Shown: positions 25,072 to 29,064 of the stretch, piece after piece | Position numbering within the stretch: position 1 is the stretch's first letter | Layout: each line of letters opens with the position of its first letter | Source: Acidobacteriota bacterium | GTDB lineage: Bacteria; Acidobacteriota; Vicinamibacteria; Vicinamibacterales; 2-12-FULL-66-21 | Length of the DNA: 62,059 nucleotides | Assembly: GCA_003222675.1 (NCBI GenBank) | Contig: QHWT01000047.1 | Span: forward strand, 1 to 62,059 | Direction: 5' to 3' | Position numbers and translations under genes: made by a program | Notes under the pieces: model-generated | Seen by the model: the letters and a program-made list of their open reading frames with translations, nothing else | What the model was told of the DNA's origin: nothing | The model's database searches: none

Positions 25072-26466
25072 TTACCAATCCATCAATTGATCGAGCGCTT
25101 CACCCACTGTCTTGACGGGAATCAGCTCGCAGCCATCCGGCGCTTCGTCGGGAGCACAGTTGCCGAATGGAACGATGATGCGCGTGAAGCCCATTTGCGC
25201 TGCTTCGCGAAGCCGCAACGCCGCCTGGCTGGTTCCGCGGATTTCGCCCGCGAGACCGACTTCACCGAAGACGGCGGTCCCCTGTCGAATCGGTCGATTG
25301 CGCATGCTCGAGGCGACGGCGCCGACGACAGCGAGGTCGGCGGCCGGTTCCTCGATCGTCATGCCACCCGCGACATTGATGAAGACGTCTTCGCCCATCA
25401 AGTTCAGGCCCGCGCGCTTCTCGAGAACGGCGAGCAGCAGCGACAGGCGGTTCTGATCGATGCCGCTCGCCATCCGCCGCGCGTTGCCATACGAACTGGT
25501 GCTGACGAGTGCCTGTACTTCGACCAGCAGCGGTCGCGATCCTTCCATGCAGCACAACACCGCGGAGCCCGGCGCGTTCGCCGGACGCTCCGCGAGAAAC
25601 AACGCCGAAGGATTCGGCACCGCTTTGAGGCCTTTGCCCGTCATCTCGAATACGCCGAGCTCGCTGACGGCTCCGAACCGGTTCTTCACGGCGCGCACGA
25701 CACGATGCGAATGGTGCTTCTCGCCTTCGAAGTACAGCACGGTGTCGACGATGTGCTCGAGCGCTTTCGGACCGGCGAGGTTGCCGTCCTTCGTAACGTG
25801 TCCAACCAGGAACGTCGGGATGTTCTGCCCCTTCGCGGCAAACAGCAGCTGCGTCGCCGCCTCGCGAACTTGCCCGATGCTGCCGGGCGCCGACTGAAAC
25901 TTCAACGAAAAGACCGTCTGCACCGAGTCGATGATGATCAGCGCGGGCCGCAGCCGAGCGATTTCCTCGAGGATCCGTTCGAGACACGTCTCCGCGAGCA
26001 GATACAAGGGCGCGCGCGCGACGCCAAGCCGTTCGCCGCGCGACTTGATCTGGTGCTCGGATTCTTCTCCCGAGCTGTAAAGGACCGGCCCGGTCGTGTT
26101 CGCGAAGTGGGACGCGGCCTGCAGCAGCAGCGTGGACTTGCCGATCCCGGGCTCGCCGCCAATCAGGACCAGCGAACCCGGCACCACTCCGCCGCCAAGA
26201 ACGCGATCGAACTCGCCGATGCCGGTCGAGAGCCGCTCCGATACGACCGTGTCAATTTCTTCGTACAGCCGCGGTCCCGCGGTGGCAGCAAGTGCATACC
26301 TGGACCCGGCGCTCGCCGCCGCAGCGCCCGCGCCCGCAATCGCCGGAACGGGGCGCTCCTCCACGAGCGAGTTCCAGGCGCCGCACTCCGCGCAACGCCC
26401 GAGCCACTTGGAGCTTTGTGCCCCGCATTCCTGGCAGCAGAAGACAGTGATCGACTTACGGCTCAT
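25072..26466 (-). CDS. radA: DNA repair protein RadA
   Basis: RecA-like ATPase that promotes branch migration in recombination. The 464-residue protein has the N-terminal zinc finger (FCCQECG ... GRCAECGAW), Walker A GGEPGIGKST, Walker B region PALIIIDSVQTV, the family-specific KNRFG motif, and a C-terminal Lon-protease-like domain (EDVFINVAGGMTIEEPAADLAV; PIRQGTAVFGEVGLAGEIR). All motifs are intact. It starts three bases after the alr stop. Confidence 0.97.
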   Translation of the reverse strand: MSRKSITVFCCQECGAQSSKWLGRCAECGAWNSLVEERPVPAIAGAGAAAASAGSRYALAATAGPRLYEEIDTVVSERLSTGIGEFDRVLGGGVVPGSLVLIGGEPGIGKSTLLLQAASHFANTTGPVLYSSGEESEHQIKSRGERLGVARAPLYLLAETCLERILEEIARLRPALIIIDSVQTVFSLKFQSAPGSIGQVREAATQLLFAAKGQNIPTFLVGHVTKDGNLAGPKALEHIVDTVLYFEGEKHHSHRVVRAVKNRFGAVSELGVFEMTGKGLKAVPNPSALFLAERPANAPGSAVLCCMEGSRPLLVEVQALVSTSSYGNARRMASGIDQNRLSLLLAVLEKRAGLNLMGEDVFINVAGGMTIEEPAADLAVVGAVASSMRNRPIRQGTAVFGEVGLAGEIRGTSQAALRLREAAQMGFTRIIVPFGNCAPDEAPDGCELIPVKTVGEALDQLMDW

Positions 26467-26469
26467 GAC

Positions 26470-27720
26470 TCATGACCCAGGGTTATATACGCGTTCAATC
26501 CTTGTACCGACTCTGCAGAGCAATTCGTACGGAATGGTGCCAATCGCGGCGGCGATCTCCCGGACGCCGATCGACTCGTTTCCCTGCTCTCCGACGATCA
26601 CGACCTCGTCTCCTGCCGACACCTCCATTCCCGTGACGTCGACCGTCGTCATGTCCATGCACACCGAGCCGACGATCGGGACGCGCCGTCCGCGGACGAG
26701 CATGCAGCCGCGCCCGGCGAGGCGGCGATCCAGACCGTCCGCGTAGCCGGCGGGCACGACCGCGATCGTCGTCGGCCGGTCGACCACCGTCCTGAGGCCG
26801 TAGCCGGTGCCTTCGCCCGGGCGCATGCCTTTCACATGCACGATACGGCTGTGGAGTGACAGGGCAGGTCGCAGCGTCAGCGTGGACGAGAGAGGCGGCG
26901 GAACGACGCCATAAAGAAGGAGGCCGGGGCGGACGAAGTCGTACCAGACACGCTCGTCGCGGAGCAGCGCCGCGCTGTTGGCCGCGTGGCGCCACTTGGG
27001 ATGGATCCCGAGGCCCGCGATCGTCTCGCACGCCTGCTCGAAACGCTTGTGTTGTTGCGCAAACGCCGGATGCTCGGGCTCGTCGGCGGTGGCGAAATGC
27101 GTGTGCACCGCGTCGATCGCAAGATGCGGGCTCGCGGCGATCTCGGGCAGGGTCCGTTCGAGATTGTCGTGCCGGAAGCCGAGGCGGTTCATGCCGGTGT
27201 CGATCTTGAGATGACAGTGGAGCGGTGTGTAACCCGACGACCGGGGTCTGACCCCAGTCGCGGAGGTCGCCGGGGTCTGACCCCGGTCCGGTGTGTAATC
27301 CGACGTCCGGGGTCTGACCCCGGACGCCTTAGTGCCCGGGGTCTGACCCCAGCGCGCGGCGGCCATCGCCAGCGCGCGGGCGGCGGACGGCGTGGAGATC
27401 GTGGGCGTCAGATCGTGCTCGAAAACGCCGTGCAGATCGCTGATACCGAGCGCGCCGAACACGAGGATCGCGATCCGCACGCCCGCCTTGCGCAGGACAA
27501 TGCCTTCTTCGATGTCGGCGCACGCGAGCATCGCGGCGCCCGCGCGCTCGAGCGCGAGTCCTACCTCGCTCGCGCCATGGCCGTACGCGTTGGCTTTGAC
27601 GACGGCGATGATTCGAGGTGCGGGGCGCGGGGTGCGGGGCGACGAAACCAGAGCCGATATCGCACGCAGGTTTGCCTCGATGGCGCCGAGATCGACGATC
27701 GCGCGTGTGTGCCGGACCAC
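26470..27720 (-). CDS. alr: Alanine racemase with repeat-encoded in-frame insertions
   Basis: PLP enzyme making D-alanine for peptidoglycan. The 416-residue frame starts with GTG at 27720, directly after the dnaB stop. The PLP lysine motif AVVKANAYGHG, LKIDTGMNRLGF, and the second-domain GEGTGYGLRTV (catalytic Tyr) and GSVCMDMTTVDVT are present. About 42 residues between ARW and LHCHLKIDTG come from four copies of GGGGTCTGACCCC (27226-27350), reading as GQTPGTKASGVRPRT-type units. A shorter insert (SSPRTPRPAPR, near 27620-27650) precedes the PLP motif. Both keep frame, and the family is normally 360-380 residues. Both inserts sit at surface loops by position. Confidence 0.95.
   Translation of the reverse strand: MVRHTRAIVDLGAIEANLRAISALVSSPRTPRPAPRIIAVVKANAYGHGASEVGLALERAGAAMLACADIEEGIVLRKAGVRIAILVFGALGISDLHGVFEHDLTPTISTPSAARALAMAAARWGQTPGTKASGVRPRTSDYTPDRGQTPATSATGVRPRSSGYTPLHCHLKIDTGMNRLGFRHDNLERTLPEIAASPHLAIDAVHTHFATADEPEHPAFAQQHKRFEQACETIAGLGIHPKWRHAANSAALLRDERVWYDFVRPGLLLYGVVPPPLSSTLTLRPALSLHSRIVHVKGMRPGEGTGYGLRTVVDRPTTIAVVPAGYADGLDRRLAGRGCMLVRGRRVPIVGSVCMDMTTVDVTGMEVSAGDEVVIVGEQGNESIGVREIAAAIGTIPYELLCRVGTRIERVYNPGS
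27226..27350. repeat. Four GGGGTCTGACCCC palindromes inside alr
   Basis: Copies lie at 27243-27255, 27272-27284, 27309-27321 and 27338-27350. Flanking pieces repeat as two ~65-bp units (GGTGTGTAACCCGACGACC and GGTGTGTAATCCGACGTCC). The whole block is in frame in alr. It is a hairpin family distinct from the GTAGG...CCTAC elements. Confidence 0.92.
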
Positions 27721-29064
27721 TTACATCGGCTGGTGGTTTTCGAACTTGGTGAACTGGGTCAGGAACGTCAGGCGCACGCTGCCGATCGGGCCATTGCGGT
27801 GCTTGCCGATGATGATCTCCGCAGTGCCCGCCTCTTCCGGCTTGGTCTCTTCCTTGTCGTAGACCTCGGCGCGATAGATGAACATGACGAGATCGGCGTC
27901 CTGTTCGAGTGCGCCCGATTCCCGGAGGTCGGACAATTGCGGCCGATGGGCGGTCCGCGACTCTGGCGCGCGGCTCAACTGCGAGAGCGCGATGATCGGC
28001 ATGCTCAGCTCCTTCGCCAGAATCTTCACCGAGCGCGAGATCGACGTCAGCTCCTGCTGCCGGCTCTCGAAGCGGCCGCGTCCCTGCATCAACTGGATGT
28101 AGTCGACGATCACCAGGTCCAGCGTGTGCGCGGCGGCAAGCCGGCGGCACTTCGCCCGCATCTCCAACAGCCCGATGCCCGGCGTGTCGTCGATGTAGAT
28201 CGGCAGATCGGCGAGCGTGCCGAGCGCGTGCGACAGCTTGCCGTAGTCCTTTTCCGTCAGATAGCCGGTGCGGAACTTGTGCGCGTCAATCATCGCCTCG
28301 GACGTGAGGAGACGCAGGAACAGCTGTTCCTTCGACATCTCGAGGCTGAAGATGCCGACCGTCTTCCCCTTCTTCGCGGCGTTCTGCGCGACGTTGAGGA
28401 CGAAGCTCGTCTTCCCCATCGCGGGACGCGCCGCGAGGATGATCATGTCCGATGGCTGGAACCCCGCCGTCAGCGCGTCCAGGTCCTGGAAGCCGCTCGG
28501 GACCCCGGTGATCGCATTCCGCTGTTCCTGCAGCTTTTCGATCGTCGCGAAGCTGCTCTGGACCAGGTCGCGCAGCGGCGTGAAGCCGGCGCTGATGCGC
28601 CCTTCCGCGATCTCGAAGATCGCCTTCTCGGCGCCGTCGAGGATCAGGTCGGCGTCTTCCTCCGCCTGGTACGCCTCGGACAGGATCCGATTCGCGGAAT
28701 GAATCAGGTTGCGAAGAGTCGCCTTCTCTTTGACGATGCGCGCATAGTGCTCGATGTTGGCGCTGCGTGGCACGCCGTCTGCCAGCGACGCGATATAGGC
28801 CGGACCCCCGACTTCATCGAGCTCCCCGGCGCGCTGTAATTCTTCCTTAAGCGTGACCAGATCGATGGCATCGCCGCGCTCGCTGAGCACGACCATTTTG
28901 TCGAAGATGCGGCGGTGGGCGTCGCGAAAGAAATCGCGCGCGTCGATGAGTTCGGCGGCGTTGTTGAACGCGTCGTTGTGGATCAGGACTGCGCCGAGAA
29001 CGGATTTCTCGGCTTCGAGATTATGGGGAAGCGTGCGCTCGGGCGCAGTGGCGACTTCGGGCAT
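27721..29064 (-). CDS. dnaB: Replicative DNA helicase
   Basis: Hexameric helicase of the replication fork, 447 residues. The N-terminal domain (LPHNLEAEKSVLGAVLIHNDAF ... RIFDKMVVLSERG) is followed by the linker and the RecA-like C-terminal domain. Walker A is ARPAMGKTSF; Walker B is DLVIVDYIQLM; the C-terminal motifs are ALSQLSRAPE and DLRESGALEQDADLVMFIYR, and IIGKHRNGPIGSVRLTF. No intein. It lies downstream of rplI in the common rpsF-rpsR-rplI-dnaB order. The alr GTG start abuts its stop. Confidence 0.98.
   Translation of the reverse strand: MPEVATAPERTLPHNLEAEKSVLGAVLIHNDAFNNAAELIDARDFFRDAHRRIFDKMVVLSERGDAIDLVTLKEELQRAGELDEVGGPAYIASLADGVPRSANIEHYARIVKEKATLRNLIHSANRILSEAYQAEEDADLILDGAEKAIFEIAEGRISAGFTPLRDLVQSSFATIEKLQEQRNAITGVPSGFQDLDALTAGFQPSDMIILAARPAMGKTSFVLNVAQNAAKKGKTVGIFSLEMSKEQLFLRLLTSEAMIDAHKFRTGYLTEKDYGKLSHALGTLADLPIYIDDTPGIGLLEMRAKCRRLAAAHTLDLVIVDYIQLMQGRGRFESRQQELTSISRSVKILAKELSMPIIALSQLSRAPESRTAHRPQLSDLRESGALEQDADLVMFIYRAEVYDKEETKPEEAGTAEIIIGKHRNGPIGSVRLTFLTQFTKFENHQPM

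What the first reader, a model, noticed from the sequence alone, without database searches (positions are those of the whole stretch)
26470..27720. Palindromic repeats read in frame inside alanine racemase
Four GGGGTCTGACCCC palindromes (27243-27350) encode ~42 extra residues between a helix and the LKIDTGMNRLG strand of Alr. A second small insert lies before the PLP lysine motif. Both keep frame and the enzyme motifs are intact. This shows that repeat elements can enter essential genes as tolerated peptide loops.
Basis: partly seen in the sequence, partly recalled or inferred. Interest (0 to 1): 0.66.

Follow-up and report, generated by a model that had tools for sequence, protein, structure and literature searches.

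The report
Repeated palindromes inside alanine racemase gene
A short repeated DNA palindrome, probably mobile, is read into the gene for the cell-wall enzyme alanine racemase as a loop of 39 extra residues, and different palindromes sit in the same few loops of that enzyme in related bacteria, so one enzyme shows where a protein can take in foreign DNA.

Summary
The main observation is real. Window alr (26470-27720, minus) holds four exact GGGGTCTGACCCC palindromes, two tandem 66-nt units in frame, adding 39 residues between helix 111-126 and the KIDTGMNRLG strand. The "second small insert" is not supported. The palindrome is a dispersed repeat: 42 exact copies in 24 places of this genome (Acidobacteria, judged by named relatives), reversed control 0. 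The same unit, one palindrome of four imperfect, flanks a Y1 (RAYT/TIRYT-type) transposase gene as inverted repeats. In 12 of 24 places it lies in frame inside or between conserved domains. The fold is predicted intact (pLDDT 91; residues 131-160 about 45-53). No other alanine racemase was found.

New here: at the same junction two family members carry different genome-wide palindromes (G001, G010), while 133 of 136 readable genomes have no insert of 4 or more residues. Across the order, 61 inserts of 8 or more residues, many not independent, map at or beside four helix-to-strand junctions. Strong inverted repeats are enriched at two of these (10 against about 0.1 expected; elsewhere 4 against 4.4). 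In-frame palindromes are known (Rickettsia RPE, intragenic REPs); new is recurrent entry of different families into one enzyme's loops. Activity and expression are untested.

The parts
26470..27720 (-). alr, alanine racemase, 416 codons, GTG start, with an in-frame palindromic insert
   Evidence: Ala_racemase_N 9-274 (5.9e-59) and Ala_racemase_C 286-412 (1.5e-44); Foldseek best hit 4y2w alanine racemase
27223..27339 (-). insert of 39 codons (residues 128-166) against the empty G008 allele; the exact ends are ambiguous by a few codons
   Evidence: ref position 125, net 39 aa; residues 131-135 and 138-150 pLDDT below 50
27223..27288 (+). repeat unit 1: GTGTGTAA tag, palindrome, 16 nt, palindrome
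   Evidence: (D1, spacing 66)
27289..27354 (+). repeat unit 2, tandem copy, 53 of 66 identical to unit 1
27243..27255 (+). palindrome GGGGTCTGACCCC copy 1
27272..27284 (+). palindrome copy 2
27309..27321 (+). palindrome copy 3
27338..27350 (+). palindrome copy 4
27614..27641 (-). GC-rich 14-nt direct repeat in the loop before the PLP lysine; a copy of an abundant low-complexity repeat, adding about 2 residues against G008 by my reading
   Evidence: (D5)
27721..29064 (-). dnaB, immediately upstream on the same strand (context)
25072..26466 (-). radA-like gene (name recalled; Pfam shows KaiC/AAA, Zn ribbon, ChlI, Lon_C), immediately downstream on the same strand; used as the length control

Best explanation
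The palindromes are copies of the terminal repeat of a small IS200-like (Y1, RAYT/TIRYT-type) mobile element still present in this genome. A 66-nt terminal unit (22 codons, no fixed stop in any of the three frames on the coding strand used here) entered alr at the junction between a helix and the next barrel strand and was then tandemly duplicated; 66 is a multiple of three, so the frame was kept. The 39 added residues form a disordered loop on the face of the barrel that does not bear the active site, so the enzyme keeps working and selection does not remove the insert. The same filter (open frame, helix-to-strand junction) explains why other palindromes have settled in the same few junctions of Alr in relatives. 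Shown: the sequence, the repeat family, the flanked transposase gene, empty alleles, different palindromes at the same junction, placement of longer inserts at or beside helix-to-strand junctions, the predicted fold. Inferred: transposase-driven mobility, the order of insertion and duplication, remoteness from the active site, retained activity.
For: 42 exact copies in 24 places of the genome, reversed control 0. 34 tag-plus-palindrome matches within 3 mismatches, control 0. A Y1_Tnp gene at C50 flanked on both sides, in inverted orientation, by the tag/palindrome/16 nt/palindrome unit found in alr, one palindrome of the four being imperfect. The unit's invariant parts carry no stop in 3 of 3 antisense frames and in 1 of 3 sense frames; in the 12 places inside or between conserved domains I read 9 antisense, 1 sense and 2 mixed. 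In a thiolase 36 residues lie between blocks that end at residue 190 and start at residue 191 of 3goa (the second block starts inside the last palindrome, so the edge is approximate). No insert of 4 or more residues at the alr site in G003, G005, G006, G007, G008 or in the 128 readable genomes outside the family. G010 and G001 carry there copies of other repeats, with 100 and 140 pattern matches in their genomes, controls 0. AlphaFold2 mean pLDDT 91.3, residues 131-160 about 45-53. dN 0.134 / dS 0.656 against G001.
Against: No enzyme assay, peptide or transcript. The assembly could not be checked with reads. No relative read holds this same repeat at this site, so the insertion itself is seen once. 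Transposase mobility on these repeats is not shown, and the genome has a second Y1_Tnp gene (C9) whose flanks I did not examine. Residue changes unique to this Alr against G001 are 23/16, 24/21 and 22/20 with three outgroups: slightly more in each case, untested. In the Ser/Thr kinase the palindrome-coded stretch stands in the activation loop without lengthening it against PknB, so simple insertion does not describe every case. In G008 only 2 of 17 places had domains on both sides, so frequent intradomain placement is not general.
Confidence: 0.85

Rival explanations
1. The insert has been recruited: the peptide loop or the mRNA hairpins now serve a function (for example tuning Alr activity, partner binding or translation) and are kept by positive selection.
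For: Three different palindromes at one junction in three family members, and repeated decoration of the same enzyme, would also fit a benefit. In a kinase the palindrome-coded peptide stands in the activation loop.
Against: Inserted sequences differ between relatives in sequence and length; 133 of 136 readable genomes have none at this junction; the AlphaFold2 model gives no structure to the loop.
Confidence: 0.08
2. Assembly or binning artefact: repeat copies were wrongly joined into alr.
For: The genome is a draft in 152 contigs, and short repeats can mislead assembly.
Against: The 66-nt units are short, differ from each other (53 of 66 identical) and from other copies; they lie inside a 211-kb contig with alr directly between dnaB and the radA-like gene; the repeat lies in frame in other genes with different flanks.
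Confidence: 0.05
3. The insert arose by local replication slippage of GC-rich DNA, not from a dispersed repeat.
For: Two tandem units; other alr loops in the order hold low-complexity inserts and, in G007, repeats of the gene's own HAANSAA segment.
Against: The unit matches, tag included, a dispersed repeat and the flanks of a transposase gene; the palindromes have no counterpart in the empty alleles printed. Slippage can explain only the second copy.
Confidence: 0.03
4. The gene is decaying and the insert is a mark of its loss of function.
For: None beyond the insert itself and a slight, untested excess of residue changes on this branch (23/16, 24/21, 22/20).
Against: Full-length frame, conserved motifs, dN/dS about 0.2; no other alanine racemase among the PF01168 hits, which by my reading are a D-threonine-aldolase-like protein, a YggS-like protein and a LysA-like protein.
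Confidence: 0.02

Closest known systems
[quoted passage not shown]
   Same: Palindromic repeats read in frame inside unrelated genes, giving extra peptides predicted compatible with function (described in PMC10969869, passages seen; the original papers by Ogata were not read, one is not held).
   Different: RPEs are about 150 bp. The unit here is 66 nt with a GGGGTC-GACCCC core and flanks a Y1 transposase gene. No sequence comparison with RPEs was made.
Intragenic GTAG/CGTC REPs (PMC3733652, 2013)
   Same: Short tagged palindromes, more than half of the inserts dimers or grouped, inside ORFs; the paper also notes different REPs at about the same site of recB in Xanthomonas campestris and oryzae (section 15 read). 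The G001 alr insert looks like this kind (GTAG followed by a palindrome).
   Different: The window unit has a GTGTGTAA tag, not GTAG or CGTC. The words 'alanine racemase' do not occur in that paper's main text; its additional files were not seen.
TIRYT elements (TIR-associated tyrosine transposases), same paper
   Same: IS200-like transposase gene flanked by inverted repeats; the motif GGGGWSAS shared by some of them fits GGGGTCAG (window) and GGGGACAG (G010) (section 16 read). One sharply defined group of these transposases is from Acidobacteria.
   Different: Section 16 does not describe TIR repeats inside coding sequence; the additional files were not seen.

Membership tests
RAYT/TIRYT-associated palindromic repeat | short palindrome dispersed in many copies | tested here: met
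   42 exact copies in 24 places, reversed control 0
RAYT/TIRYT-associated palindromic repeat | flanks a Y1/HUH transposase gene as inverted repeats | tested here: met
   PF01797 hit at C50:75551-75817, 2e-10; both flanks carry the unit in inverted orientation, one palindrome imperfect. HUH-like NHWH and a Tyr further on read by eye in the ORF. The second PF01797 gene (C9) was not examined
RAYT/TIRYT-associated palindromic repeat | GGGGWSAS motif of some TIRYT ends | tested here: met
   GGGGTCAG fits by inspection; motif
GTAG-class REP | GTAG-type tetranucleotide at one end | tested here: not met
   window unit carries GTGTGTAA instead
RAYT/TIRYT-associated palindromic repeat | mobilised by the transposase | not testable with these tools
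   needs experiment
Protein-coding palindromic element (RPE-like) | repeat lies in frame in genes whose relatives lack it | tested here: met
   alr; thiolase against 3goa; other genes: in frame by Pfam, empty relatives not fetched for them
Rickettsia palindromic element proper | sequence similarity to an RPE family | not tested
   no RPE sequence was compared
Alanine racemase | both Alr domains, PLP-lysine region and fold | tested here: met
   (TM 0.83/0.88 to 4y2w)
Alanine racemase | racemase activity | not testable with these tools
   needs assay

The most novel reading that the evidence does not exclude
Alanine racemase is a recurrent acceptor of unrelated mobile palindromes: within one bacterial order, different palindromic families have independently entered the same helix-to-strand junctions of its barrel, three of them at one junction within one family. 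This would be a natural loop-insertion scan of an essential enzyme, and some of the inserted peptides may have been put to use.
Probability: 0.6. Interest if true: 0.68.

Novelty: new variant of a known kind. Interest (0 to 1): 0.56.

Why it matters
Coding palindromes are best known from Rickettsia. Here an Acidobacteria genome has a transposase-linked repeat in frame in a dozen enzymes and other proteins, and its order shows repeated entries of different palindromes at the same junctions of alanine racemase. That makes an old question (which protein sites accept foreign peptides, and whether such inserts are ever put to use) directly testable: the same enzyme exists with no insert, with three different inserts at one site, and with others at two further sites.

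Tried and rejected
Alternative alr elsewhere: rejected; the other PF01168 hits read as D-threonine-aldolase-like, YggS-like and LysA-like (names from my reading of the sequences, not from a family search, because the NCBIfam scan failed and was not repeated). The second insert as a true insert: rejected. Chance palindromes: rejected for strong inverted repeats. A looser cut-off (stem 10, span below 110) gave 88 observed against 55.4 expected from codon shuffles, so many of those are chance. In one search (loops up to 12 nt only) 12 of 64 inserts of 7 or more residues had a stem of at least 8; for these at most 1 of 100 base shuffles, but up to about 10% of other windows of the same gene, did as well. 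So most alr inserts in the order are not shown to be palindromic; many, above all a 10-residue insert shared by many genomes of family f2 in loop A, look like ordinary inherited loop variation. Literature: no paper holding GGGGTCTGACCCC; in the 15 listed of 127 none holds both alanine racemase and a palindromic-repeat term; in the 15 listed of 79 none holds both a Vicinamibacteria genus name and a palindromic-repeat term. Gene context in G008 as a test of generality: 2 of 17 places had domains on both sides, and one of these (L294) rests on a second domain stretch whose position was not printed.

Rows dropped: 143 of 162 order genomes had an Alr match. I read 138; the five not fetched (G025, G035, G044, G053, G160) were the weakest matches. 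Some of the 138 are partial: 129, 136 and 136 cover loops A, B and C. The RadA control used 132 near-full-length rows; partial, end-clipped and paralogous rows were left out by hand. Of the 24 repeat places 20 were scanned with Pfam; L012, L018, L019 and L028 were not. The output was cut, so part of L026/L027 was seen only through its references and later calls.

Full report
What is in the window. The alr gene (26470-27720, minus strand, between dnaB and a radA-like gene) has both Alr domains. Four exact copies of GGGGTCTGACCCC lie at 27243-27350, as two tandem 66-nt units. Against the empty allele of relative G008 the gene has one insert of 4 or more residues: 39 residues, 128-166. The loop before the PLP lysine holds a GC-rich repeat but no such insert.

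What the repeat is. The genome (7.16 Mb, 152 contigs, 99.9% complete) has 42 exact copies in 24 places and none of the reversed control. A longer form with a GTGTGTAA tag gives 34 matches within three mismatches, control 0. At contig 50 a Y1_Tnp gene is flanked on both sides, in inverted orientation, by tag, palindrome, 16 nt, palindrome: the same unit as in alr, with one palindrome of the four imperfect. A second Y1_Tnp gene at C9 was not examined. The GGGGTCAG end fits the GGGGWSAS motif reported for some TIRYT elements. 26 of 60 genomes (the window's own among them) have the 13-mer, with the reversed control 0 or 1 on each strand of each.

Where the copies lie. Of 24 places I scanned open frames of 20 with Pfam. 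In 12 the repeat lies inside a domain or between two conserved domains in one frame: alr, thiolase, an AMP-binding/PP-binding/acyltransferase fusion, an FG-GAP/UnbV protein, PriA, Lnt, a polysaccharide deacetylase, a Trans_reg_C/PD40 protein, a phage-integrase-family recombinase, a kinase, an ArsA-ArsA fusion and UreD. Three more (a CarboxypepD_reg/TonB-plug protein, a beta-lactamase-family protein, AMMECR1) are probable, shortly before the matched domain part. Nine are unsupported; two of them are the transposase's own ends and four (these two, L012, L028) were not scanned. In the thiolase 36 residues lie between blocks ending at 190 and starting at 191 of 3goa, the second block starting inside the last palindrome; in the recombinase the insert lies between two blocks aligned to XerD. 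In the kinase the coded peptide stands in the activation loop with no added length against PknB. The printed solved-structure alignments of PriA, UreD, Lnt and AMMECR1 did not cross the insert (one unprinted Lnt match, 5n6m, spans it). The unit's invariant parts carry no stop in 3 of 3 antisense frames and in 1 of 3 sense frames. By my reading, in the 12 places 9 are antisense, 1 sense and 2 mixed, as expected if random insertions are filtered by open frame.

Is the enzyme intact. AlphaFold2 with 62 sequences gives mean pLDDT 91.3 and pTM 0.90; the insert lies between helix 111-126 and strand 167-174, with block means of about 45-53 for residues 131-160. Foldseek's best hit is an alanine racemase (4y2w, TM 0.83/0.88). 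dN 0.134, dS 0.656 against G001; changes unique to this branch against G001 are 23/16, 24/21 and 22/20 with three outgroups, a slight excess that I did not test. No other alanine racemase was seen among the PF01168 hits.

The same enzyme in relatives. Of 162 order genomes 143 have an Alr match at E up to 1e-40 and I read 138, from loci and stretches. At the window's junction (loop B) 136 are readable and 3 have inserts of 4 or more residues, all in the window's family: G000, G001, G010; five other family members and 128 of 128 others have none. The G010 insert is a copy of AAAGGGGACAGTCCCCGTTTT: 100 matches within three mismatches in G010 (many sites are counted on both strands), 0 or 1 in five other genomes, control 0. 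The G001 insert is a GTAG-palindrome: 140 matches in G001, 97 in G000, 142 in G003, 3 in G010, 2 in G005, 0 in G008, control 0. So three different dispersed repeats sit at one junction. In G072, of another family, the window's own palindrome, present 57 times in that genome, lies in the alr loop before the PLP lysine. Mapped on the model, the 61 inserts of 8 or more residues lie at or beside four helix-to-strand junctions: 34 at H25-E36; 23 at or around H236-E243, 11 of them placed by the alignment inside the neighbouring helix or strand; 3 at H126-E167; 1 at H59-E64. None maps clearly to a strand-to-helix loop. These are not 61 events: a 10-residue loop A insert, for one, is shared by many genomes of family f2. 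In barrels of this kind the active site lies at the strand-to-helix loops (recalled), so these junctions would be on the other face (inference).

How much of this is palindromic. Perfect inverted repeats of stem 12 or more (span below 110): 10 in loops A and C of eight genomes against about 0.1 from codon shuffles, and 4 elsewhere against 4.4; the longest stems are 36, 30 and 26. Whether these are dispersed repeats in their genomes was tested only for G072. Loop B repeats have shorter stems and rest on their genome-wide copy numbers. Most of the 64 inserts of 7 or more residues show no strong palindrome. As a length control, the radA-like gene has 1 of 132 near-full-length copies with 15 or more net residues, while 23 of 138 Alr genes have 15 or more summed inserted residues; the two measures differ, since one is net and the other sums inserts, and one control gene cannot show that Alr is exceptional.

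Against what is known. In-frame palindromes are known from Rickettsia (PMC10969869, passages) and, as intragenic REPs, from several species; the 2013 paper reports different REPs at about the same site of recB in two Xanthomonas species (PMC3733652, sections 15 and 16 read). So the kind is known. I found no report of this repeat or of palindromes in alanine racemase in the library searched (listings, capped), which misses most subscription journals.

Verdict. The wider finding is the recurrence: different palindromes at the same junctions of one enzyme. Whether this reflects toleration only or also a target preference or use is open.

Noticed in passing
L262 (G007 alr): The conserved HAANSAA segment of Alr is tandemly repeated (three copies in all), adding 30 residues in frame just before the conserved strand.
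   Followed up: partly
L029 (G000:C117): In a Ser/Thr kinase the palindrome-coded peptide LGSDPGRPITHMAG stands where the activation loop should be, with no added length against PknB.
   Followed up: partly
L037 around 1940-2060 (G000:C50): The transposase's right terminal repeat appears to run into the start of a purN-like frame (name recalled), so that protein may begin with repeat-coded residues (read by eye).
   Followed up: no
L036 (G000:C9:10742-11080): A second Y1_Tnp gene lies in this genome; its flanks were not examined.
   Followed up: no
window 27614-27641: A GC-rich 14-nt repeat (CGCCCCGCACCCCG) is abundant in the genome: 79 near-copies of a 22-mer against 11 for the reversed control.
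   Followed up: partly
G001, G000 and G003 genomes: A GTAG/GTGG-tagged palindrome (such as GTGGCTTCCGCCTTCAGGCGGAAG) gives 140, 97 and 142 matches there and 2, 0 and 3 in G005, G008 and G010.
   Followed up: no
L273 (G111 alr), L259 (G013 alr), L206 (G071 alr): Perfect inverted repeats with stems of 36, 30 and 26 bp lie inside alr coding sequence; whether these are repeated in their genomes was not tested.
   Followed up: no
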